From Halorubrum californiense DSM 19288 (lineage in GTDB: Archaea > Halobacteriota > Halobacteria > Halobacteriales > Haloferacaceae): DNA of 51,877 nucleotides. Shown here piece by piece: positions 1 through 17,447 of this stretch (its first letter is position 1; the number at the start of each line of letters is the position of its first letter). The position numbers were made by a program, and so were the translations under genes. The stretch is taken from assembly GCF_000336875.1 (NCBI RefSeq), contig NZ_AOJK01000067.1, forward strand, positions 62,921 to 114,797, in the 5' to 3' direction. Below the pieces are notes generated by a model, which did no database searches, was not told the DNA's origin, and saw nothing but the letters and a program-made list of their open reading frames with translations.

Positions 1-1302
1 GTATCCTTAGAATTGTTTTCCTCTCTAAATGAGGATCCCGAATATCTGGGCAGCGATACTGTTTTTCGCCCGGAATTTATTCACGGGATTACAACGGAAG
101 GGGAGAGAGTCACCCTAAAAAACTGTATTCGAGGGAGCTATTCTATGTCCTCTTCACAGGGGGTAGGAGTGACCAGCTCCAGTTACCAAGCAATCTCTCT
201 CCTTTCAGGAGCACATTTTTCAGAGCAAATCAATTTCGATAGATTCCGTGTCCAATTCCCCCTTCTCACAAAGTGGTCGGGAGTCACCGGCGTCAACTAT
301 TCGGGGTCTGTTCTTGAAGGAGGAGAAGTATCTGCGGGAGATACGTTTGAGATCACCTATGAATTTCCGGAATCAATTATTGCAGAACTGGATAATGCGG
401 AACTCAAGCTAATTTTTAACGCTGATTTTAATATGGGTCGAGTGGGCGGTGTATCAATTGATGAAGAGGTCTACTTTGATATTATCCCTGATTCAGACCA
501 GATTTCATATGACGATTCAATTAACTACTCTGGAACACTACAAGATTTCATCACCTTAGCAACCGGCAAAGAAGTTCAAGCGTCTATGATGCTCGGACGT
601 TTAGAACGAAATGAGCAGCCAGGATATAATGATGTAGAAATAATGTTTTCTACAAGTGGCGATCTCAAGTTGCCGGATAGTCTCCATCCGCTGAAAGCGA
701 ATTTTGTCCTTGCCGATATCGTTGATGACTTTTCTGAGGTTATGAACAATTGGTTTGAGCACTACGAGGAATTAGAACCTGTTTATAATCTCTATTTCAG
801 CGTACAGTATAACTCAGAAATGTATCTTCAAAATCAACTCCTCTCTCTCACACAGGCGATAGAGACATATCATCGAAGAGAAATTGGTGGTCAATATCTC
901 ACCGATGACGAGTTTGAGGAGTTTTATGATAATCTTTGTGAGAGTATCCCTGATAGATTTGATGAGAGTTTCCGAGATCATCTGGAGCAGGGGACATTCA
1001 AATATGCGAATGAGTATTCTCTCAGAAAGAGATTATCTCAAATGGTTTCAGAACATGAGAATATCTTTGAGGAGCTACCTATGGATATCGAGGCAACCGT
1101 GAATGAGATTGTGAATACTCGGAATTATCTGACTCATTATGACGAGAGCATTACTCCCCGGGCTGACACAGATGAACTTCATCCTCTAATTCTACGATTG
1201 AGAGCTATCCTCGAAACTGTACTTCTGTCGAATCTAGGAATACCAGAAGATCAGATGGTGGAACGGTTACAACAGCGTTACTCTGAACTCACAAGATCGT
1301 AA
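1..1302 (+). CDS. ApeA-like HEPN-domain protein (5' end cut by window)
   Basis: The reading frame is open from the first base; the first possible start is a TTG at 13, so the true start probably lies outside the window. Numbered from 13 there are 429 residues. The N-terminal part is beta-rich, with an IHGIT...VTLKNC stretch like the N-terminal domain of ApeA anti-phage proteins. The C-terminal part is helical and contains RNYLTH (residues 370-375), matching the RxxxxH motif of HEPN ribonucleases. ApeA-type proteins are thought to cut RNA and arrest growth on infection; that role is inferred here from family likeness. The segment is AT-richer than the following TnpB region, suggesting transferred cargo. 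The ApeA assignment is likely but was not checked by profile search. Confidence 0.65.
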   Translation, partial: VSLELFSSLNEDPEYLGSDTVFRPEFIHGITTEGERVTLKNCIRGSYSMSSSQGVGVTSSSYQAISLLSGAHFSEQINFDRFRVQFPLLTKWSGVTGVNYSGSVLEGGEVSAGDTFEITYEFPESIIAELDNAELKLIFNADFNMGRVGGVSIDEEVYFDIIPDSDQISYDDSINYSGTLQDFITLATGKEVQASMMLGRLERNEQPGYNDVEIMFSTSGDLKLPDSLHPLKANFVLADIVDDFSEVMNNWFEHYEELEPVYNLYFSVQYNSEMYLQNQLLSLTQAIETYHRREIGGQYLTDDEFEEFYDNLCESIPDRFDESFRDHLEQGTFKYANEYSLRKRLSQMVSEHENIFEELPMDIEATVNEIVNTRNYLTHYDESITPRADTDELHPLILRLRAILETVLLSNLGIPEDQMVERLQQRYSELTRS

Positions 1303-1385
1303 AATCAGGGTCTTCAGTTCCAGCGGCTTGATTCAACGAAGATAGTCGTCTCGTACCTTACTTCGGTCCATCGTATGCAAATATT

Positions 1386-1419
1386 CTGTTTTTTGAGCGC
1401 CTGCAAAGGGTGCAGGCGC
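1386..1419 (+). promoter_or_regulatory. T-box plus GC hairpin, family member 1
   Basis: A TTTTTT run (1389-1394) is followed by a perfect 9-bp stem, GCGCCTGCA (1397-1405) and TGCAGGCGC (1411-1419), around the loop AAGGG. It precedes the 58-residue gene and tnpB by about 90 bases. It belongs to the + strand family described under findings. The T-box could be a TATA element; whether the hairpin acts as RNA or as a DNA operator is unknown. Confidence 0.6.
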
Positions 1420-1508
1420 GGTCAATCGAACCTGCACAGCACAGGTGATTCGAGATGCGACACTACCAACAGCAACAGGTGAATCGACAGTCGGAGGCTC
1501 GATAACCG

Positions 1509-1685
1509 ATGTCGGTTGACCTCACCGAAATCGAGGAGGCTGAAGTCGACCTAGAAGAGTGGTTGGTCGAACAAGCCGAGGACGGCATCCCCGAAATCGT
1601 TCTTGTAGGGCTTCTCCGAGACTACGCGGACGATATCGAACAGCTGGGCTACGTACCGCGAATGTGGGGCGAGTCCGACCGATGA
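1509..1685 (+). CDS. 58-residue acidic protein overlapping tnpB
   Basis: ATG at 1509 opens a 58-codon frame starting [18 protein letters not shown] and ending MWGESDR. Its TGA stop (1683-1685) overlaps the tnpB start codon (1682-1684) in an ATGA arrangement typical of translational coupling. The protein is strongly acidic with a short hydrophobic stretch ([13 protein letters not shown]), and no known domain is recognisable. The tight overlap implies co-expression with TnpB, so it might be a regulator or accessory factor of the element. That is inference. The overlap also sets the tnpB start, because the tnpB frame is open further upstream. Confidence 0.6.
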
Positions 1686-2923
1686 GACGAACCAACTCCT
1701 TCGAGGTTGTACCCCAGTCGGAACAGGCCGACACAATCCTCCGACGACTCCTCGATGCGTCAGCGAGCCTCTGGAACCAACTCACCTACGAGCGCCGGCA
1801 GCAGTTCTTCGCCGGCGAGAGCGTCTGGGACTGCGAAGACTACTACGACGAGTACGTGGACGTCTTAGGGTCGGCGACGACGCAGCAAGTCACGCGCGTC
1901 AACGACGCCGCTTGGCGGTCGTTCTTCGAGACGGTCGAGGAGGCCGCCCAGGAGGTCAGTCCACCCGGCTACTGGGGGAACCAAGCCGATGGCCGCGACT
2001 TGCGGACCTACATCCGCAAGGACGCCTACACGATCAGCTGGGGCGAGCGCTCTCGGCTTGAAGTGCCCATCGGCAGCCAGCTCAAAGACGAGTACGGCTT
2101 CAGTCGGTTCGAGCGGCTCCGGGTTGCGGTCCAAGGCGACCCGCATTGGCAGGGCGAGCAGGGCCGTCTTCACCTCACTTACGACGACATCAACGAGACG
2201 TATCGTGCCCACCAGCCGGTGACGGTCTCCGACCAAGGGCAGGCGACGCCGACTGGTTCGGACGTCGCCGCGCTCGATATCGGCGCGAACGTCCTCGTGG
2301 CGTGTACGACGACGGCCGGCGACCAGTACTGCTACAGCGGCCAGGAGCCGTTCCGACAGTTCCGTGAAACCACCGAGCGCATCGCCGACGCCAAGGCAAA
2401 GCTGCCGGATGGACAGCAGACCAGCAAGCGAATCCAGCGGCTCTATCGGAAGCGCTCTCGCCGACGAGACCACGCCGTAAACGCGCTCCTCCGTGATCTG
2501 GTTGAGCGTTTGCACGACGATGGCGTCGCAACCATCTATCACGGCGATCTCACCGGCGTCCTCGGCGAGTACTGGTCGGTCGAGGCGAACCTGAAAGCCC
2601 GCACCTTCTGGGCACACCGGCAGTGTCTCGATCAGCTAGCGAACGTCTGCGAAGAGTACGGGATCGACGTGGCAGCAACCTCCGAAGCGTGGACCTCCCA
2701 GACGTGTCCGGAGTGCGGCGAACGCGAGCAGACGCGCCGGCATCGCGAGACGTTGACCTGTCCGTGTGGCTTCGAGGGGCACGCCGACCTCGTCGCCTCG
2801 CGGACGCTGCTCGAACAGGCGACGAACACTGCGGTCAGGCCGACGGCACGGCCCGTGCGGTTCCAGTGGGACGACCACCAGTGGTTCCCCGTCGAGGAGG
2901 ACGCGGTGGCTCCCAACGAATAG
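1682..2923 (+). CDS. tnpB: TnpB family RNA-guided nuclease-like protein, variant RuvC-II
   Basis: A 413-residue IS200/IS605-IS1341 TnpB (OrfB) protein. The RuvC-I Asp is D199 in ALDIGANVL. The zinc ribbon is CPEC (342-345) with CPC (360-362). The RuvC-III Asp is D369 in GHADLVAS. The RuvC-II position, where active TnpB has Glu in a hydrophobic-E-D-L motif, reads YHGDL with Gly288, so the usual catalytic Glu is absent. Active TnpB uses an omega RNA to cut DNA at the donor site; this copy may be nuclease-poor and could bind without cutting. There is no TnpA gene nearby. The start at 1682 was chosen for its ATGA overlap with the upstream small gene. The 3' flank is highly structured. Confidence 0.85.
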
Positions 2924-2949
2924 CGTACAGACCCGTAAGGTGCCGCCGT

Positions 2950-3024
2950 GGTGTCGCTGTGACACCAGCGAGCGGACGCTCCGGGGTTCCGGAGTGGATG
3001 TCGATCCGCTGGTCGCTCGCTTTT
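2950..3024 (+). ncRNA. Structured tnpB 3' flank, candidate omega RNA or terminator
   Basis: Three nested stems follow the tnpB stop. GGTGTC/GACACC pairs at 2950-2955 and 2961-2966. AGCGAGCG (2967-2974) pairs with CGCTCGCT (3014-3021). Inside it, CTCCGG (2979-2984) pairs with CCGGAG (2989-2994). The fold ends in TTTT. TnpB guide RNAs are made from this side of the gene, so this is a reasonable candidate scaffold, but a strong terminator would look similar. The element's right end cannot be fixed by eye. Confidence 0.35.
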
Positions 3025-3389
3025 CAAGCTGGTTGTACTTTCAGTACTGCTCTTCTTGGGCGTTGTGTAGCCGCCTATATTCGCAGCTGATCGAACGATT
3101 CAGCGGCAGCGTATTCAGCCAGCAGTAGGTTCCTCGGCTGGCTGGTGTGATACTCATCGGCTCGCACCGCTCGCCGCTTTCCGCCCTCCGCGTCGCTCGC
3201 GACCGACCATTCCGGACGGTCTGCCTGCAGTAGCGGGCGGACTGCCGGGCTAAAATGAATGTGCCCTCGACGCCAGCGGGAAAGCGCGGGGGGCTGCGCG
3301 GCGTGGCTGCTCACCCCCCACGCTTTCTCCGCTGGTCGCTCGCTCCGGGCGGGTCGGCGCGCGGTGCTGGTTGGGATCGCCGCACTCGG

Positions 3390-3499
3390 GCGCGCTCTCG
3401 CTCGCGCCCAGTAGGGCGCTCGCGAAGGCGCGAGCGAGAGCGCGCAGATGGTTCTGTCGGTCGTTGTCGTCGGAAAACCGCGATGTTGGAGCATCGCGG
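3390..3499. repeat. 18-bp inverted repeat with nested hairpins
   Basis: GCGCGCTCTCGCTCGCGC (3390-3407) and its exact reverse complement (3428-3445) flank a 20-base spacer. Two shorter hairpins compete with the long stem: GCGCCC/GGGCGC (3404-3409, 3414-3419) and CTCGCG/CGCGAG (3419-3424, 3429-3434). A further 8-bp hairpin, CCGCGATG/CATCGCGG (3478-3485, 3492-3499), follows. No gene was seen between 2924 and 3537 on either strand, so the whole 614-base gap is structured and noncoding apart from the tnpB 3' flank. It may be a cruciform, a leader for the next gene or a transposon end. Confidence 0.5.
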
Positions 3500-3537
3500 T
3501 GTCGGCGCGTGCGCGCCTTCGGTCTTTGGTGAGACCA

Positions 3538-4437
3538 ATGTCAAGTAACAGCTCTAGTAGCAAGGTCGTTACGGTGGATGAACAGGCATTCGAGAAAGCG
3601 GGCGGTCAGACGGTCGATGAAGACGGCTTCCCGGTCGTCGACGAGACGCCGGAGTTCGAGGCGGCAGTCAAGCAGGAGACGCAGGCAAAGGTGGATGCGA
3701 ACCACCCGAACGGGATCGCGGACACGAGCGAGGAACGGATTCACGGTGTCACCCTCGAACAGGAAGAGCGCATTCAGGCGCGGGAAGCAGAACTGGAGCG
3801 CATCAGTGCCCAGGCCGAGCTGGGAACGCAGGAGGGCCGGGAGCAGCGCACGCGGGAGGTCGCCGCCCAAGGGAGCAAGCAGCGTCGGCAAAAATTCCAG
3901 AAGCGTGCCGCGAGCCTGGATCCGATGGCCGACCCCGAACGAGATGATCCCCGAGCGGAGCTCACCCAAGACGAACTGGCGACGGTGAACACGGAGGCAG
4001 ACCGACTCGCGACACGGTTGGATGGCTGGTCGCGGGCGGCGATCAGTCGACGCCTGGCCGACGCAGTCGTCGACGGCTCGGACATGACGAGTGCGGTCGT
4101 GCGGGTGTTCGAGGAGTTGCAGACAGCCCCGGGGGGCACCGTGCCCATCGACGCCCTCGAGGATGTCGATCGCAAAGAAGTGAGTGTTGAAGGTCAAATC
4201 GAGGTGCTTTGGGATAGTGACTCGCCAGCCATCGCTCAAGTTGGCCTCATCGCGGATGAGAGCGGGCAAACGAAGGTAACGATCTGGGAGAAATCGAATG
4301 CTCCCTGGGTTGAAGAGGGTGAACGGGTGCGCATCCACGGAGCAGCGAGAAATTGGTACGAAGGACGCGTCTCACTAGCGGTCACTGGCTGGTCGACCCT
4401 TCATTTCCCAGAGCGCGGCCGCTGGTGGGACGAATAG
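3538..4437 (+). CDS. OB-fold (RPA/SSB-like) nucleic-acid-binding protein
   Basis: 299 residues from ATG 3538, chosen because the upstream extension runs through the repeat-rich leader and because GGTGAG (3528-3533), an SD-like sequence, lies just before. The N-terminal two-thirds is charged and helical, with coiled-coil-like EEERI...REAELERI. The last 90 residues read VSVEGQIEVLWDSDSPAIAQ..., then KVTIWEKSNAPWVEEGERVRIHGA, an OB-fold pattern seen in archaeal RPA/SSB-like proteins. A role in binding single-stranded DNA on the plasmid is inferred. The pairing GGTCT (3521-3525) with AGACC (3532-3536) would partly mask the SD, which could limit translation. Confidence 0.6.
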   Translation: MSSNSSSSKVVTVDEQAFEKAGGQTVDEDGFPVVDETPEFEAAVKQETQAKVDANHPNGIADTSEERIHGVTLEQEERIQAREAELERISAQAELGTQEGREQRTREVAAQGSKQRRQKFQKRAASLDPMADPERDDPRAELTQDELATVNTEADRLATRLDGWSRAAISRRLADAVVDGSDMTSAVVRVFEELQTAPGGTVPIDALEDVDRKEVSVEGQIEVLWDSDSPAIAQVGLIADESGQTKVTIWEKSNAPWVEEGERVRIHGAARNWYEGRVSLAVTGWSTLHFPERGRWWDE

Positions 4438-4673
4438 ACAATCGGAGCAGCCTCTTTTTTATTGAGTGCCGGACCCGACCCAAGCCCCACCTCCCCACCC
4501 ACCGCTCCGTGCTCGCTTCGCTGCGCGCGCAGCCGAGATCTCGTCTTTGGGCGTGTGTGCTGAGAGAATTGGCCGCTATCGAGACAGGACCAGTTATTTG
4601 TCCCTTGGAGGGGTGGAGTTGATATTGAGATAGGATTAGAATATATAAGAAAATATACCTTTTTTGGAAATGC

Positions 4674-5045
4674 TCAATTGTCAGCTGTATAATCAGTTAG
4701 TTGTCTCTGCTTAACTCTCATTTTTGAGGCTCTGTAGAGGTATGTAAAATGCTTGTCACAAAGTAGCCAGAATTCATGAATATTATTTCCGTCATCAAAC
4801 GTCATTGTGCCCAGTGATTTTGTAGTCTCAAGCTCCCAGGTTGCATATTTCGCTAGTGAGCCACAAAACGCGCACAATCTTTGACCTCCCGCACGTCTCC
4901 TAAGCTCGATCAGACAGCTGTTACAAAGCTGAATGTTGCGGTCATCTGTTCCTATAAATCTATATACCTGATTCTGTACAGACCCAGAGCCGCAGTTAGC
5001 GCAAGCACGGTCTTTGAAGACCTCAGCAAGTGGATTTGTTTTCAC
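4674..5045 (-). CDS. Small zinc-binding protein, two Cys pairs
   Basis: 123 residues beginning MKTNPLAEVFKDRACANCGS. It has paired cysteines CANC...CNSC and then CAFC...CDKH, consistent with two zinc knuckles or one treble-clef-like fold. Its start overlaps the stop of the membrane-protein gene upstream by 4 bases (5042-5045), so the two form a coupled operon read leftward. The pair is visibly AT-richer than the flanking high-GC genes. No family is recognised. It could be the regulatory or sensing partner of the membrane protein, but nothing in the sequence proves this. Confidence 0.6.
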   Translation of the reverse strand: MKTNPLAEVFKDRACANCGSGSVQNQVYRFIGTDDRNIQLCNSCLIELRRRAGGQRLCAFCGSLAKYATWELETTKSLGTMTFDDGNNIHEFWLLCDKHFTYLYRASKMRVKQRQLTDYTADN

Positions 5046-6142
5046 GGGAACTCTGATAAAGTGTGGTTCGTTCGGGAGCTTGGTTTGCTCCGAATCTCCC
5101 CCGATCTCTCGTTGTACACCAAGTACCCAGCTTCTTCCAATTCTGAGAGGCGGTACTCCAATGATGACTCTTTTTCTCTAACCAACCTTTTTAAAACTGA
5201 GATAGAAATCGTACCTGTCTCTGAGACAATAGTTTTGATTGCTTGTTGTTTTGTCCACCTATTTTGCCACTTTTGTTCATCCCTTCGATCATCAAAATCT
5301 GAGGCAATTTTATCGACTGATGCCTCAATGTTCGCGGCACTAGAAGCCAAGGAATCAATGGGGTCCACCTCCCATATCTCACTCGCCTCTTGTCTCTGAC
5401 TCATGACGCCGAAATCAACTGTGCCGGAGAAGGTATGGGCCATATCCATCTGATCCTCACATTTAATTGTGAAGTCAATATCAAGCGAATTACCATTGTC
5501 CTCTAAATAGTCTCGTATTTGATCTGTGTTCATAATCCATCCATCATCATCATCCACGACTACTGGAAACGCAGCGGTGTCGCCCGGTGCGAGGTCTGGT
5601 GTCTCCCACTTTCGTGTTTCACCAGCTACTTCCCACTCTGCTGTAATATTATGCGCATAGTCTTCCCCGGTATTTCTAATCACAAATTGGGTAGTGACGG
5701 CACTCCGGTTTTCTAAATCACCCGTTAGATATGGTTGGTACTGTTGTGCTAATACTCGCGCCTGGCGATCATATAAGATAACCAAACCAAATGAGAGAGC
5801 AATTGAGCCAAAGGCCCCAAAGACAGGAGCCATTATGGTTAATTGATTATCTCCCTGCGAGGGGACGAGATCAATGGTCTGGTTTAATTCTAACACAGCT
5901 GTAACAGAGGCCAAGAGGATCGCTCCATAAGCCAACAGAACTCCCTTGCGTAACCACCCTTTTCGCAAGGCACGCCGGATATGGTTGAGGGCATTTACCG
6001 GTTGTTTTTCCCCCAAGTCATCAATTACTGGCTTGAATTTCTTCCATACGGGTACGATTATAAGAAAAACCAAAGTGGTTGAAATAACCCCTATGTAGAA
6101 TGGCGATATCCCAATATTTTCGATTATGGGTACACTTGGCAT
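5042..6142 (-). CDS. Three-TM membrane protein with Ig-like and winged-helix domains
   Basis: 366 residues. Hydrophobic segments lie at about 14-33 (FYIGVISTTLVFLIIVP), 67-86 (GVLLAYGAILLASVTAVLEL) and 103-125 (IMAPVFGAFGSIALSFGLVI). A beta-rich stretch at about 150-210 (FVIRNTGEDYAHNITAEWEV) resembles an Ig or CARDB fold. The C-terminus is a helix followed by a winged-helix-like segment (TISISVLKRLVREKESSLEYRLSELEEAGYLV). It is co-translated with the zinc protein at 4674-5045. Membrane-anchored proteins with cytosolic DNA-binding-like tails in AT-rich accessory islands are often defence or stress effectors; that is only a hypothesis here. Confidence 0.6.
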   Translation of the reverse strand: MPSVPIIENIGISPFYIGVISTTLVFLIIVPVWKKFKPVIDDLGEKQPVNALNHIRRALRKGWLRKGVLLAYGAILLASVTAVLELNQTIDLVPSQGDNQLTIMAPVFGAFGSIALSFGLVILYDRQARVLAQQYQPYLTGDLENRSAVTTQFVIRNTGEDYAHNITAEWEVAGETRKWETPDLAPGDTAAFPVVVDDDDGWIMNTDQIRDYLEDNGNSLDIDFTIKCEDQMDMAHTFSGTVDFGVMSQRQEASEIWEVDPIDSLASSAANIEASVDKIASDFDDRRDEQKWQNRWTKQQAIKTIVSETGTISISVLKRLVREKESSLEYRLSELEEAGYLVYNERSGEIRSKPSSRTNHTLSEFP

Positions 6143-6330
6143 ATCTTCTCTACCAGAGATATTGTTAAGAAAGTTGTTTAATCCAACTGTATTTTAGGTC
6201 CGCCAGAGCCCATCCACAGTAAATATAAAATTAAAATTTCAAGATCTTTTTTCCAAATAGCTAATATTATTGTCAGTAAATGAATGAGTCTATTACTGCC
6301 TTTGACACCTGAGTCATATCCAAACGATAG

Positions 6331-6362
6331 CGTTTATTTTCCCTTCAGAGGGTGAGGGGCGC
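6331..6362 (+). promoter_or_regulatory. T-box plus hairpin, family member 2 (ahead of TFB)
   Basis: CGTTTATTTT (6331-6340) is followed by CCCTT (6341-6345), loop CAGAGGGT and GAGGG, with one G-T wobble. It matches the family layout with GGGTG in the loop. It lies about 35 bases before the TFB start, linking TFB to the same set of genes. Confidence 0.5.
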
Positions 6363-6397
6363 GCCGTTCTGGCGGGTTCCTGAACACGGTGAGACCG

Positions 6398-7324
6398 ATG
6401 GCAACCAGAGACATCTACGAGAGCGGATTTGACGAAGACGTCCAAGCCGAACCGACCACAAACCAGTGTCCCGAGTGCGACGGACGAGTCACCACGAACG
6501 CGGTCGAAACGGTCTGCGAGGACTGTGGGCTGGTCATCGATGAACAGCGAATCGACCACGGGCCGGAGTGGCGGGCGTACGACGACGAGGAGCGCGAACG
6601 AACGGGCGCCCCACTCACTGCTGCTCGCCATGATCGCGGCCTGTCGACGGAAATCGGTCGTGGCACCGACGCGAAGGGGAACGAGATCTCTGGGCAGAAG
6701 CGACGGCGACTCGCGCGGATGCGCCGTGAGCAGACCCGTGGTCGCTGGCGGTCGAAAGCAGAACGGAATCTCGCCCACGGGCTGGGTGAAGTGCGCCGGC
6801 TGGCGAGCGCCCTCGAACTCTCCAATTCGGTCCGCGACCAGGCGTGTCAGCTCTTTCGGAGCGCTCAGAACGAGGATCTGCTTCGTGGCAGATCCATCGA
6901 AGCCATCGCCGCGGCCAGCGTCTACGGAGCCTGCCGGTGTAACGGCCTCTCGCGGTTAGTGGACGACGTCAGCGAGATGGCCCGCGTCGCGGAGTCACGG
7001 GTCACGAACGCGTACAAAACGCTGAACGAAGAGCTGGGCCTCCCTGCTAAGCCCGTCTCCCCCAGCATGTTCGTGCCGCGGCTCGCCTCGGACCTCGAGT
7101 GTCCGGACGAAATCCGACAACGGGCCCGAACCCTCGCAGAGCAGGCCGAAGAGCGCGGCGTCACGACGGGTGTCCATCCAGCCGGGTTCGCCGCGGCCTG
7201 CCTCTACAAGGCCGGTCGCGACAAGGGCCGATGGCTGACGCAATCCGAGGCCGCGGACGTGGCGAACGCCTCGAAGGCGACTGTCCGGGCACACCGAGAT
7301 ACGTTGGAGGAACAGGTCGCCTGA
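6398..7324 (+). CDS. tfb: Transcription initiation factor B (TFB)
   Basis: 308 residues from ATG 6398; a GTG at 6389 would add three residues but overlaps the likely SD GGTGAG (6388-6393). The N-terminal zinc ribbon is C24-x2-C27 and C40-x2-C43. A B-reader/linker follows (GAPLTAARHDRGLSTEIG), then two cyclin repeats (RRLASALELSNSVRDQACQLF and IAAASVYGACRCNGLSRLVDD; LASDLECPDEIRQRARTLAEQ and AAACLYKAGRDKGRWLTQSEA). TFB recruits RNA polymerase to TBP-bound promoters. Haloarchaea carry many TFBs with partly distinct regulons. Because this gene has the T-box/hairpin element in front, it could serve the accessory genes that share that element (inference). Confidence 0.95.
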   Translation: MATRDIYESGFDEDVQAEPTTNQCPECDGRVTTNAVETVCEDCGLVIDEQRIDHGPEWRAYDDEERERTGAPLTAARHDRGLSTEIGRGTDAKGNEISGQKRRRLARMRREQTRGRWRSKAERNLAHGLGEVRRLASALELSNSVRDQACQLFRSAQNEDLLRGRSIEAIAAASVYGACRCNGLSRLVDDVSEMARVAESRVTNAYKTLNEELGLPAKPVSPSMFVPRLASDLECPDEIRQRARTLAEQAEERGVTTGVHPAGFAAACLYKAGRDKGRWLTQSEAADVANASKATVRAHRDTLEEQVA

Positions 7325-7428
7325 GGCAGTCCACTGTCTCTCCGTCTGTACTGCACATCGGTCTATCCACGCTACGACTTAAACACGAAGACGAACGAAA
7401 TTCTCTGTAGACTACTCTGTAAGCTAAC

Positions 7429-7444
7429 CCGTCTAAAGAGACGG
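7429..7444 (-). repeat. tnpB right-end hairpin
   Basis: CCGTCT (7429-7434), AAAG and AGACGG (7439-7444) form a 6-bp hairpin spanning the stop codon of the minus-strand tnpB. Subterminal hairpins mark IS200/IS605 ends, and the guide RNA of TnpB comes from this side. The exact right boundary probably lies between 7325 and 7428 but cannot be fixed. Confidence 0.4.
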
Positions 7445-8662
7445 ACCTTCACCATGGACTCCCGCTCTAACCGAATCCGGTATGGGTTTGACTCCGTTCG
7501 CGTTCAGCATCCCGGTGTTCAAGCGCACGCCTACGGGTGCGCCTCCTTCGCCGCCAGTTTGGTTGCGAAGGAGTCGATAGCCGATGTTCTTCGATGCGTT
7601 GTAGTCCGCGTGATTCTCATACCCACAGGACTGACAGCGAAAAGTGTCCTGCGACGGGCGGTTGTCCTCGTGGGTGAATCCACACGACGAACACCGCCGG
7701 GACGTGTTCTTCGGGTTTACCTGCTCAACTTGAATTCCGCGTTCCTCGGCCTTGTACGAGACAAAGTCATACAGGCGGTTGAATGCCCACTCGTGGAACT
7801 TGCGGACGTCGGGCATCCGATCTCGGATATCCGTCAGGTCCTCGAAGGCGATTACCGTACAACCGCTCTCGCTCGCTTCAGCGACGAGGTCGTTCGCGAT
7901 ATGGTGAAGGTACTGCTCGAAGCGGCCCGTCTCCTTGCGTCCGACCGCTTGGACATTCTCGTGGGCCCACCGCGAGCCACACTCCTGCAGCGACTTGCGG
8001 CGCTCGACGTACTCCTGCCGCCAGTGGTTGAGTTCGTCGGCAGACCAGAACACACCAGTCGAGGTGACGGCTATGTTCTCAATCCCGAGGTCCACACCGA
8101 GGACCGTTCCGTTCTCGGCGGGTTTGGGATCGTCCACATCCGCCTTTGTTCGGACGTGGAGGTAGAAATCGCCACGACGGTAGTGGAGTGTCGCGCCTGT
8201 CGTCTCCCACCGTTCAGAATGCAGGTACTTCGAGTGGGGCGTGTCACGGGCCCTGTCGGGCAAGGCGTACTCGACGGTGACACGTCCATCGACAGTAGAC
8301 AACACGGCGTGGTCGTCGTGGAACGTGGCGTTGCGCTGGTTGTATTCGCAGAACGGCGAGGAGAACGTCGGAATCGAAGCGTACTCGCCGTTCTTCCACT
8401 CGGCGACGACGCTCTTGAGCGCGTCAACAGCACGGTTACGAGCCGATTGGACGTGGTTGCTGTGGAGTCGCGTCTGCTCGCGAACTTCGTCATAGGTCAT
8501 CTCATGCAGGGCGGACGAACGGGTTTCAGCCCATTCGCCGTCCCACGCAGCGTCCACGACGTAATTGGCTGCCCACAGGAACTCGCCAATCGTCTCGTGA
8601 AGCAGGTCCGCCTGCTCGTCAGTCACGTCGAGTTTGACTGGGACAGTCCGACGGACCTCCAT
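7433..8662 (-). CDS. tnpB: TnpB (IS1341-type), intact RuvC triad
   Basis: 409 residues from ATG at 8662 ([17 protein letters not shown]); a longer frame upstream starts in the element's flank and was rejected. The RuvC residues are all present: D191 in [10 protein letters not shown]274 in IAFEDLTDI and D353 in HADYNASKN. The zinc ribbon is CSSC...CQSC. The tail after [12 protein letters not shown] is the glycine-rich extension typical of haloarchaeal IS1341 copies, whose coding end overlaps the guide-RNA region. There is no TnpA, so movement would need one in trans. It sits between TFB and the 8807 gene in opposite orientation and may have separated that gene from its original promoter. Confidence 0.9.
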
Positions 8663-8806
8663 GCAACTCACAACTCGATCTATGCTTAAATGTATTAATA
8701 TAGTCAGGTGGAGAATGGAGTCTTCCACCGGCAACGGCGGTAGCGTAGGCAAGCGAAAACAATCCTTCCCTCAGCTGCGAGGTCCGGTTTCCGCAGGGTG
8801 GTATCT

Positions 8807-9688
8807 ATGAACGGTCGTTACTCCGACTTTGAGGAACTGCGGCCGACCGGCGAGGCGTCCCACATTCCGGATACGCGGCTGGACGACGGGTGTGAAGGTG
8901 ACCCCCGACGGCAACGCGTCGCGAAGAGCACGGGGGGTTACCCCGATGCGCCGACGGTAACCGACGGCGAGTGCCGGTCCTGTGGGGCGTCAGTCCCAGA
9001 CGGGCAGACGAAATGCCGGTTCTGTCTCACCAACCATCTCGGAAGTGACGCCACTAGAACGAACGAGACAGCGTCGACGACGTTCCTCGGTATCGTCCAC
9101 CTGATCGTCGAGTCGACCACGTTCTACGGCGCCGTGGCGAAGGGCGGCGCCGCGGCGAACCTCCTCTCCGCCAACGAGGCGGAGCCGGCCGTCGACGACT
9201 ACACCCTCATCTACGATCTCGACGAACCACCGGCGCGCCAGCTGGTCGAGCAATGGCCCTCACTCCCCGACGCGGTACAGGTGGCCTCAGAGGAGGGAGA
9301 GCGGCTTCTCAGTGCCGCCCGTGACCGGGCTGGGTGGCACGAGCAGGGAGCGTCGGAGCGTCAGGAGCAGGCCCCGACGCGGCTCTACGACCAGCGTGGG
9401 GACGGCATCCGCGACGCGTCGCGTCTCGGTGCGGTCCTCGACGACGCCGACGACGCGGTGTGGCTGGTTCCAGCGATGGCGCTGACCGAATCCACTGGCG
9501 CGGCTGCGGCTGATCGCCAGGTGTCGTCGGTACCGACGACGCAGGAACTCGACTGTCAAAACTGTGGACGGGCGACCGACCACCAGTTCAAGACCCACGA
9601 GTCGGTCCCGAATGGGGTGTGGACGGGGCAACCGATGTGGGAGTGCCGGGTGTGTGGCTCGGCTCGCTACGGACCCAGTCTCGAGTAG
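8807..9688 (+). CDS. Zinc-ribbon protein with N- and C-terminal Cys motifs
   Basis: 293 residues from ATG 8807, chosen over GTG 8798 because AGGGTGG lies just upstream as an SD. The N-terminal zinc motif is CRSCGASVPDGQTKCRFC. A middle region follows with FLGIVHLIVESTTFYGAVAKG and a charged DDYTLIYDLDEPP stretch. The C-terminal zinc motif is CQNCGRATDHQF...WECRVCGSARYG. It looks like a known haloarchaeal plasmid-borne family, but I cannot name a function. Its upstream region is the tnpB left flank and lacks the T-box/hairpin carried by its neighbours. Dyad copy 1 begins 20 bases after its stop. Confidence 0.7.
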   Translation: MNGRYSDFEELRPTGEASHIPDTRLDDGCEGDPRRQRVAKSTGGYPDAPTVTDGECRSCGASVPDGQTKCRFCLTNHLGSDATRTNETASTTFLGIVHLIVESTTFYGAVAKGGAAANLLSANEAEPAVDDYTLIYDLDEPPARQLVEQWPSLPDAVQVASEEGERLLSAARDRAGWHEQGASERQEQAPTRLYDQRGDGIRDASRLGAVLDDADDAVWLVPAMALTESTGAAAADRQVSSVPTTQELDCQNCGRATDHQFKTHESVPNGVWTGQPMWECRVCGSARYGPSLE

Positions 9689-16955: not shown

Positions 16956-17447
16956 ATGCACATGGTGATTTACGCTCTGGTAGAAGAATCGACCCACGAC
17001 GACGCCCTGGCCACCGGAAAGGCGGTGTTCAACCGCTTGGTCGGGACGGACCCACACGCCGGCGCCGTCTTCGACTACCACGTGACTTTCGATGAGGAGG
17101 ACACGTCCGTTGCGGGGACGGCGCGATGGGGTGAGTTGCCGACTGCAGCCCCCGTCGACTCCGATGACGGCCAAGACCTGCTTGAGCGTGGCTGGGAGGC
17201 GACGAAAGAGGAGTTCGAGCGGAATCTCGACCGGGTGAGGGAAGCACTTGACGAACTCTCCGACGAGGAGATCATGCGCGACGAAGATCTCGCTCGGCAC
17301 GCGTTCCACCAAGTCGGCGCCTACGACGGGCCAACGATCTTCCTGTATAACGAATACGCGAACGGTATCCGTCACCGTGAGCAGCTGGATCGAGTGCTGG
17401 AGGAGAGCGAGGAACTCTGGATCGTGCCCGCCGACGTCCACTTCTAA
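16956..17447 (+). CDS. 163-residue acidic protein, unknown
   Basis: 163 residues from ATG 16956 (MHMVIYALVEESTHDDALAT). The start is set by SD GAGGTG (16944-16949) six bases upstream; a GTG at 16929 would lie before the SD. The protein looks alpha/beta: MHMVIYALVEES is a strand, then a helix (DALATGKAVFNRLVG), later EEFERNLDRVREALDELSDEE and GPTIFLYNEYANGIR. No family is recognised. It is followed three bases after its stop by the DUF7568-like gene, so the two are probably co-transcribed from family member 6. Confidence 0.6.
   Translation: MHMVIYALVEESTHDDALATGKAVFNRLVGTDPHAGAVFDYHVTFDEEDTSVAGTARWGELPTAAPVDSDDGQDLLERGWEATKEEFERNLDRVREALDELSDEEIMRDEDLARHAFHQVGAYDGPTIFLYNEYANGIRHREQLDRVLEESEELWIVPADVHF

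What the first reader, a model, noticed from the sequence alone, without database searches (positions are those of the whole stretch)
1509..3024. TnpB with Gly in place of the RuvC-II Glu, plus a coupled 58-residue protein
The first TnpB has both Asp residues (D199, D369) but YHGDL where the second, intact TnpB at 7433-8662 has AFEDL. Loss of that Glu would be expected to weaken or abolish DNA cutting, as in nuclease-dead TnpB-like repressors. The ATGA-coupled acidic protein and the folded 3' flank suggest a functioning unit. From memory, haloarchaeal relatives also have GDL here, so this may be a lineage with a different role or a shifted catalytic residue.
Basis: partly seen in the sequence, partly recalled or inferred. 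Interest (0 to 1): 0.6.

Follow-up and report, generated by a model that had tools for sequence, protein, structure and literature searches.

The report
Plasmid-bound TnpB with a frozen guide
This haloarchaeal TnpB has not lost its DNA-cutting centre: the missing glutamate sits 47 residues further on, as in Fanzors, and its lineage has swapped its transposase for a small protein and kept one guide sequence that matches a control region carried by many haloarchaeal plasmids, so it looks like a settled RNA-guided plasmid-targeting system rather than a dead enzyme.

Summary
In detail: D199, Gly288 (YHGDL) and D369 in TnpB (1682-2923), a 58-aa protein S (1509-1685) coupled by ATGA, and a folded 3' flank. 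The 'dead nuclease' reading does not hold. [12 protein letters not shown] puts E335 six residues before the zinc finger, the published alternative glutamate (Ealt) of Fanzors and some TnpBs. In haloarchaeal TnpBs, Glu at one site excludes Glu at the other (68 G/E, 22 E without alternative E, 0 E/E), and TnpB and S are under strong purifying selection. New here: S fills the slot that TnpA has in related IS elements; S-coupled TnpBs form one clade (support 0.98). In the window's group the 16 nt at the guide position (3005-3020) are conserved across 27 loci, whereas TnpA-coupled relatives have variable guides. They match a conserved element, R, upstream of a replication-factor-A gene on haloarchaeal plasmids. 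The sister subgroup interrupts R exactly at the guide start; intact R sites occur in many genomes, some with TTAC, the TAM inferred independently. S-TnpB plasmids rarely keep a TAM-bearing R (2/21 against 16/42, p = 0.02, exploratory). Most likely: an immobile, guide-frozen, cleavage-competent TnpB targeting R on plasmids lacking it. Cleavage, TAM use and the role of S are untested.

The parts
1389..1440 (+). T-run plus palindrome GCGCCTGCA-aaggg-TGCAGGCGC (arms 1397-1405, 1411-1419), followed by a third copy of the arm (CCTGCA): promoter/leader region of the S-TnpB operon
   Evidence: Conserved upstream of S in nearly all homologues; similar leaders elsewhere in the window
1509..1685 (+). S, 58-aa acidic protein, two predicted helices, in the slot that tnpA occupies in related IS elements
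   Evidence: dN/dS about 0.14; AF2 pLDDT 80
1682..2923 (+). TnpB, Ealt type; proposed catalytic triad D199 (2276-2278), E335 (2684-2686), D369 (2786-2788); Gly288 at the canonical RuvC-II Glu position
   Evidence: dN/dS about 0.15
2834..3004 (+). omega-RNA scaffold overlapping the 3' end of tnpB, ending GTGGATGTCGA (2994-3004), homologous to GAGGATGTCAA at the right end of TnpA-coupled relatives
   Evidence: Conservation, covariation, comparison with relatives
3005..3020 (+). Frozen guide TCCGCTGGTCGCTCGC, then a T-rich stretch (TTTT, 3021-3024)
   Evidence: Mean pairwise difference 0.076, against 0.305 at tnpB third codon positions and 0.62 in the flank
3141..3540 (+). R element: conserved plasmid intergenic region upstream of the replication-factor-A-like gene, with palindrome 3273-3286 / 3321-3335
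3328..3343 (+). Guide-matching site in R (16/16), preceded by TTTC (3324-3327) where four R copies elsewhere have TTAC
   Evidence: Only other exact match in the 3.68-Mb genome
3541..4437 (+). OB-fold / replication-factor-A-like plasmid gene downstream of R

Best explanation
The gene encodes a cleavage-competent TnpB with the rearranged (Fanzor-like, Ealt) RuvC site D199-E335-D369. Its lineage arose once from TnpA-carrying IS200/605-type elements when tnpA was replaced by the small gene S and the element became immobile. The group it belongs to sits in a cargo hotspot of haloarchaeal plasmids, inside or beside element R, upstream of a replication-factor-A gene. The omega-RNA made from the 3' end of tnpB carries a fixed guide that equals the half of R flanking the ancestral insertion. 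The RNP most likely cuts TAM-bearing intact R (TTAC, perhaps NTAT) on plasmids that lack the element, removing rivals or triggering repair that copies the hotspot cassette (homing or plasmid gene drive); resident plasmids would escape because their own R lacks the TAM or carries mismatches. Shown by sequence: alternative Glu, purifying selection, conserved guide, guide = R, interrupted and intact sites, replacement of tnpA by S. Inferred: cleavage, TAM use, biological outcome. Role of S: unknown; a coupled modulator of TnpB is my guess.
For: E335 fits the published Ealt pattern ExxxxxxCxxC and swaps with the canonical Glu: 68 G/E, 22 E with P or S, 0 E/E, the rest truncated or frameshifted; the same swap appears in a second TnpB group of this genome. 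Fanzor SpuFz1 coordinates Mg with D383, E541, D606. dN/dS is about 0.15 for TnpB and 0.14 for S. S-coupled clade support 0.98; tnpA sits in the same ATGA slot in relatives. Guide: 27 conserved loci against variable guides in relatives. R match: only two exact sites in the genome. Seven subclade-2 loci have ...GGGCATAT| on the left and |CCCGCTGG on the right, while intact R(c) reads GGGCATAT|CCCGCTGG, with 46 matches in 39 of 392 genomes and 0 for the control. Guides and targets vary mainly at the same positions (1, 9, 14), and exact 16/16 pairs exist. TTAC, inferred as TAM from relatives and from clade A2's interrupted gene, precedes four R copies. TAM-bearing R: 2/21 with S-TnpB, 16/42 without.
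Against: No cutting, RNA or TAM data. Several resident plasmids, the window's included, carry a 16/16 match in R (with TTTC in place of TTAC), so self-avoidance rests on the TAM assumption. G265 and G296 carry ATAT-type R with two mismatches. TTTC-type R also occurs on plasmids without S-TnpB. R(c) has ATAT, not TTAC. IMG/VR shows no excess of the 16-mer (28 against 41 for the reversed control). Part of the guide can pair with the scaffold. The AF2 model of TnpB is poor (pLDDT 49), so E335's geometry was not tested.
Confidence: 0.6

Rival explanations
1. RNA-guided regulator (TldR-like): the RNP binds R without productive cutting and controls the replication-factor-A gene or plasmid copy number.
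For: The guide is fixed and the target lies about 200 nt upstream of the RFA gene, often on the same plasmid with a full match, which a nuclease would have to avoid.
Against: All three acidic residues of an Ealt active site are invariant; a pure binder would not need them. Most residents lack a TAM-bearing R, which would also prevent binding.
Confidence: 0.17
2. Shifted right end: the 16 nt are an added part of the scaffold or a terminator stem, the true guide is the variable flank after position 3020, and the likeness to R is a relic of insertion.
For: A T-run follows in most loci; the 16 nt can pair with the scaffold in the single-sequence fold; IS607 TnpBs shift their reRNA boundary (PMC10711439).
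Against: The scaffold end GGATGTC aligns with relatives whose guide begins there; guide variants match naturally occurring R variants, including exact 16/16 pairs; the consensus fold shows no compensatory changes involving the 16 nt.
Confidence: 0.15
3. Ordinary TnpB retained by chance or by simple plasmid hitchhiking, with no selected target.
For: Haloarchaea hold many TnpB copies (40 TNB matches in this genome).
Against: Guide and proteins are conserved across subclades with dS near 1.2, and at least 17 of the 20 extended loci lie between R copies of one hotspot.
Confidence: 0.05
4. Nuclease-dead TnpB, because the RuvC-II Glu is lost.
For: Gly288 replaces the canonical Glu.
Against: E335 takes the alternative position, with perfect mutual exclusion across haloarchaeal TnpBs.
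Confidence: 0.03

Closest known systems
Ealt TnpBs with a D-Phi-G motif (Yoon et al. 2023, PMC10711439)
   Same: Alternative RuvC-II Glu six residues before the zinc finger, D-I-G at RuvC-I
   Different: That paper describes the class; the passages read do not mention archaea, S, loss of TnpA or a frozen guide
ISHhu1-type haloarchaeal IS200/605 elements (e.g. Halobacterium hubeiense pSTJ001)
   Same: TnpB about 60% identical, Ealt, same scaffold core and same ATGA coupling
   Different: They carry TnpA; such relatives insert after TTAC or CTAC and have variable guides
TnpB gene drive of IS in plasmids (Mears et al., PMC11870625)
   Same: TnpB guide records the insertion site and removes plasmids lacking the element
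   Different: Studied on IS200/605 elements that still transpose; here the element is immobile and one guide is conserved across genera
TldR, nuclease-dead TnpB-like repressors (from memory; paper not held)
   Same: Conserved guide, TnpB origin, separated from transposition
   Different: TldR has lost RuvC residues; here all three are present
Fanzor / pro-Fanzor
   Same: Rearranged glutamate
   Different: DPG motif and IS607 or eukaryotic context; here DIG and IS200/605 ancestry

Membership tests
TnpB (OrfB_IS605 / guided TnpB) | RuvC and TNB zinc-finger domains above curated cut-offs | tested here: met
   (NF040570, 126.9 bits against a cut-off of 100)
TnpB (RNA-guided nuclease) | Guide-dependent cleavage next to a TAM | not testable with these tools
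   Needs biochemistry
Ealt TnpB (D-Phi-G type) | ExxxxxxCxxC with no Glu at the canonical site; D-Phi-G at RuvC-I | tested here: met
   E335 AWTSQT C342; G288; D199-I-G
Fanzor / pro-Fanzor | DPG together with Ealt | tested here: not met
   RuvC-I reads DIG, DLG or DVG in the relatives aligned, never DPG
Active IS200/605 element | TnpA (Y1) gene in the element | tested here: not met
   S in the tnpA slot; the 4 Y1 genes of this genome lie on other contigs
Active IS200/605 element | Insertion site varies from copy to copy, giving variable guides | tested here: not met
   Guide conserved in 27 loci; same plasmid hotspot
TldR repressor | Inactivated RuvC triad | tested here: not met
   D199, E335 and D369 invariant
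TldR repressor | Conserved guide to a fixed target | tested here: met
Plasmid TnpB gene drive | Guide equals the empty insertion site on rival plasmids | tested here: met
   Interrupted against intact R(c); biased plasmid inheritance itself not tested
Plasmid TnpB gene drive | Resident plasmid lacks a cleavable site | tested here: inconclusive
   2/21 against 16/42 TAM-bearing R, p = 0.02, exploratory

The most novel reading that the evidence does not exclude
A transposase-free, guide-frozen RNA-guided nuclease operon (S-TnpB) that acts as a plasmid-against-plasmid or homing system: it cuts the conserved region upstream of a replication gene on rival haloarchaeal plasmids, spares its own plasmid through a TAM change (TTAC to TTTC), and is controlled by a coupled small protein that replaced the transposase.
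Probability: 0.4. Interest if true: 0.82.

Novelty: new variant of a known kind. Interest (0 to 1): 0.62.

Why it matters
TnpB is the ancestor of Cas12, and how a transposon nuclease becomes a host- or plasmid-serving system is an open question. This clade appears to be caught in between: active site kept (in rearranged form), transposase replaced, guide frozen on one natural target, natural intact and interrupted target sites available, and resident plasmids with altered TAMs. Each step can be tested directly in haloarchaea, and the guide, target and TAM are already predicted.

Tried and rejected
Dead-nuclease reading: rejected on E335 and the mutual exclusion. Viral target: IMG/VR shows no excess of the 16-mer (28 against 41). 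Genome-wide loose matching (2 mismatches) is at background in every genome, so only exact or R-anchored matches were used. AF2 of TnpB gave pLDDT 49 (17 sequences), so it was not used for a fold search; only its strand order was noted (strands 282-288 and 329-334, ending at G288 and just before E335). S has no PDB fold match. Viral-contig searches with TnpB or S found nothing; only an alignment found one relative. Rfam: nothing reached gathering scores in 1-9500. Alignment A4 contained two mis-oriented rows and was replaced by A5. My first idea that the sharp homology start at window 1390 was an IS left end was dropped: about 45 nt further upstream are shared by many loci. An early Fisher test on de-duplicated sequences was replaced by a per-plasmid count. 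Papers on TldR, on TnpB diversity (PNAS 2023) and on Fanzors (Sci Adv 2023) were not held.

Full report
Observation. TnpB1 is 1682-2923 (+), S is 1509-1685 (+), joined by ATGA. TnpB1 belongs to OrfB_IS605/TNB. RuvC-I D199 (LDIGAN), Gly288 in YHGDL, D369 (GHADLV). The second TnpB (7433-8662, -) has AFEDL with Glu274 in the same alignment column as Gly288. The window lies in a Halorubrum-like genome: two same-genus genomes coincide with Halorubrum rubrum and H. persicum records.

The glutamate is moved, not lost. Yoon et al. (PMC10711439) define Ecan (about 50 residues before the zinc finger) and Ealt (six residues before it), and report a D-Phi-G clade with Ealt. Here E335-AWTSQT-C342 fits exactly, 47 residues after Gly288. 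In 97 aligned TnpBs (some near-duplicates) the column pair is G/E in 68, E/P in 21, E/S in 1, and never E/E; the remaining seven are truncated, frameshifted or gapped at the motif. A second group in the same genome (GDLGG/GDLSD ... E......C..C) shows the same swap. Solved Cas12f proteins align with EDLT over GDLT and Pro over E335. In SpuFz1 the residues that bind Mg are D383, E541 and D606 (PMC10432273, PMC11423790), so this type of site cuts DNA elsewhere. D289 is not a substitute: several relatives have GAL. dN/dS is about 0.15 for TnpB.

S and the loss of TnpA. S is found upstream of all relatives at 72-92% identity where the region was readable; in one subclade a spacer of roughly 100-200 nt separates the two. 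In TnpA-coupled relatives tnpA overlaps tnpB by the same four bases (Halobacterium hubeiense ISHhu1); in S-clade plasmids a 58-aa 'hypothetical protein' lies there (Halorubrum salinarum pHAR02). The S-coupled TnpBs (window clade plus clade A2) are monophyletic, support 0.98, nested among TnpA-coupled Ealt TnpBs. S is under purifying selection (dN/dS 0.14), is predicted as two helices, and matches no solved fold. S homologues also occur without TnpB, often before a small two-CxxC protein, so S is an older haloarchaeal plasmid gene recruited to TnpB (inference).

Scaffold and guide. The RNA region (about 2834-3004) is conserved inside and after the coding end; its main hairpin keeps pairing through double changes (GGTGTC/GACACC to AGCGTC/GACGCT). 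In TnpA-coupled relatives the conserved part ends at GAGGATGTCA(A) and the following bases are random, about 0.1 bit per column. Two 99.8% identical copies in one genome show element ends just after TTAC and after GGATGTCAA, so TTAC or CTAC is the inferred TAM. In the S clade, GTGGATGTCGA is followed by 16 conserved bases, TCCGCTGGTCGCTCGC (3005-3020), then T-rich sequence and unrelated flanks: mean pairwise difference 0.076, against 0.305 at tnpB third positions and 0.62 in the flank.

The target. In the whole genome the 16-mer occurs exactly twice: at the end of the scaffold and at 3328-3343. The second site lies in element R, a conserved intergenic region that precedes a replication-factor-A-like gene on haloarchaeal plasmids. 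R has a constant right half, GCTGGNCGCTYGCTCCGGGCGGG, and several left halves: a (GCTTTC or GCTTAC|TCC), b (GGGGAA|TGC), c (GGGCATAT|CCC), d (CGGCTT|AAA). In seven subclade-2 loci the left flank is ...GGGCATAT| and the right flank, at the guide position, |CCCGCTGG[AT]CGCT[CT]GC, while intact R(c) is GGGCATAT|CCCGCTGG. This is the interrupted and the empty site. Intact R(c) gives 46 matches in 39 of 392 genomes and none for the reversed control. Guide variants equal natural target variants: L019's guide CCCGCTGGACGCTTGC is the exact R(c) of G104, G132, G369, G060 and G109; L020's guide CCCGCTGGACGCTCGC is that of G088 and G318. Guides vary mainly at positions 1, 9 and 14, the same positions that vary in a- and c-type targets. 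Clade A2 shows the same logic at another place: it interrupts a gene whose intact homologue stands at 16956 of the window, with TTAC|TACGTNACGTTYGAYGAGGA as empty site and the matching conserved bases at the guide position.

Context. Of 20 extended loci, at least 17 have R copies on both sides of S-TnpB, with variable cargo between: an ApeA/PDC-S58 gene in the window, SIR2-like, restriction-like, transporter or vitamin genes elsewhere. S-TnpB therefore lives in one plasmid hotspot. Plasmids with S-TnpB carry a TAM-bearing R (TTAC or NTAT) in 2 of 21 cases, others in 16 of 42 (Fisher p = 0.02); the two exceptions have two mismatches to the guide. Among a-type R, residents always have TTTC (10 of 10), while four plasmids without S-TnpB have TTAC. 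This test was devised after seeing the data, is not corrected for plasmid relatedness, and TTTC also occurs on plasmids without S-TnpB.

Mechanism, with steps marked. Shown by sequence: Ealt active site, selection, replacement of tnpA, conserved guide, guide equals R, interrupted and intact sites. Inferred: RNA-guided cleavage of TAM-bearing R on plasmids without the element, giving retention, gene drive or homing, as shown experimentally for IS200/605 TnpB in plasmids (PMC11870625). Guess: S modulates TnpB. The main rival is a TldR-like regulator of the replication gene.

Novelty. The Gly/Glu question alone is already explained by the literature. A TnpB clade with TnpA replaced by a small conserved protein and with one guide conserved across genera against a plasmid control region was not found in the papers searched, but that library is partial. 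I rate it a new variant of a known kind.

Noticed in passing
window 1389-1440, 10059, 16874, 22319 (+): Recurrent leader: T-run, GC-rich palindrome with a GGGTG loop, and in several cases a downstream third copy of the 5' arm that could compete for pairing; it precedes genes of haloarchaeal plasmid operons. Could be an operator between TATA box and start site or an RNA switch.
   Followed up: partly
L119-L150: S homologues without TnpB, preceded by the same leader hairpin and often followed by a small protein with two CxxC motifs; in L144/L145 S is coupled to a gene that looks Csc2-like by eye, and in L137 to a GIY-YIG-like one (both unchecked).
   Followed up: partly
window 13-1302 (+): ApeA-like HEPN protein (PADLOC PDC-S58, Cas13-ApeA), a putative defence gene just upstream of the S-TnpB operon inside the hotspot.
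   Followed up: partly
L086 / G000:C62:35264-38322: Second R-type locus of the same genome holds a remnant of S next to a different TnpB (EQL motif) upstream of another replication-factor-A gene: apparent replacement of one TnpB by another at the same site.
   Followed up: no
L063, L064, L077-L080 (same genome): A second, distant haloarchaeal TnpB group also has the moved glutamate (GDLGG/GDLSD).
   Followed up: partly
L130, L134, L136, L139, L146, L147: Clade A2: S-TnpB inserted in the gene whose intact homologue starts at window 16956, with the guide matching the interrupted gene.
   Followed up: partly
R element, window 3273-3335 and L313-L342: R's inner hairpin is exchanged between plasmids (types a-d) between constant inverted repeats CCAGCGG...CCGCTGG, like a modular recombination or replication site; its function is unknown.
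   Followed up: partly
window 8804-9685 (+): Protein matches NCBIfam MBSP1 (biosurfactant protein 1) strongly (459 bits).
   Followed up: no
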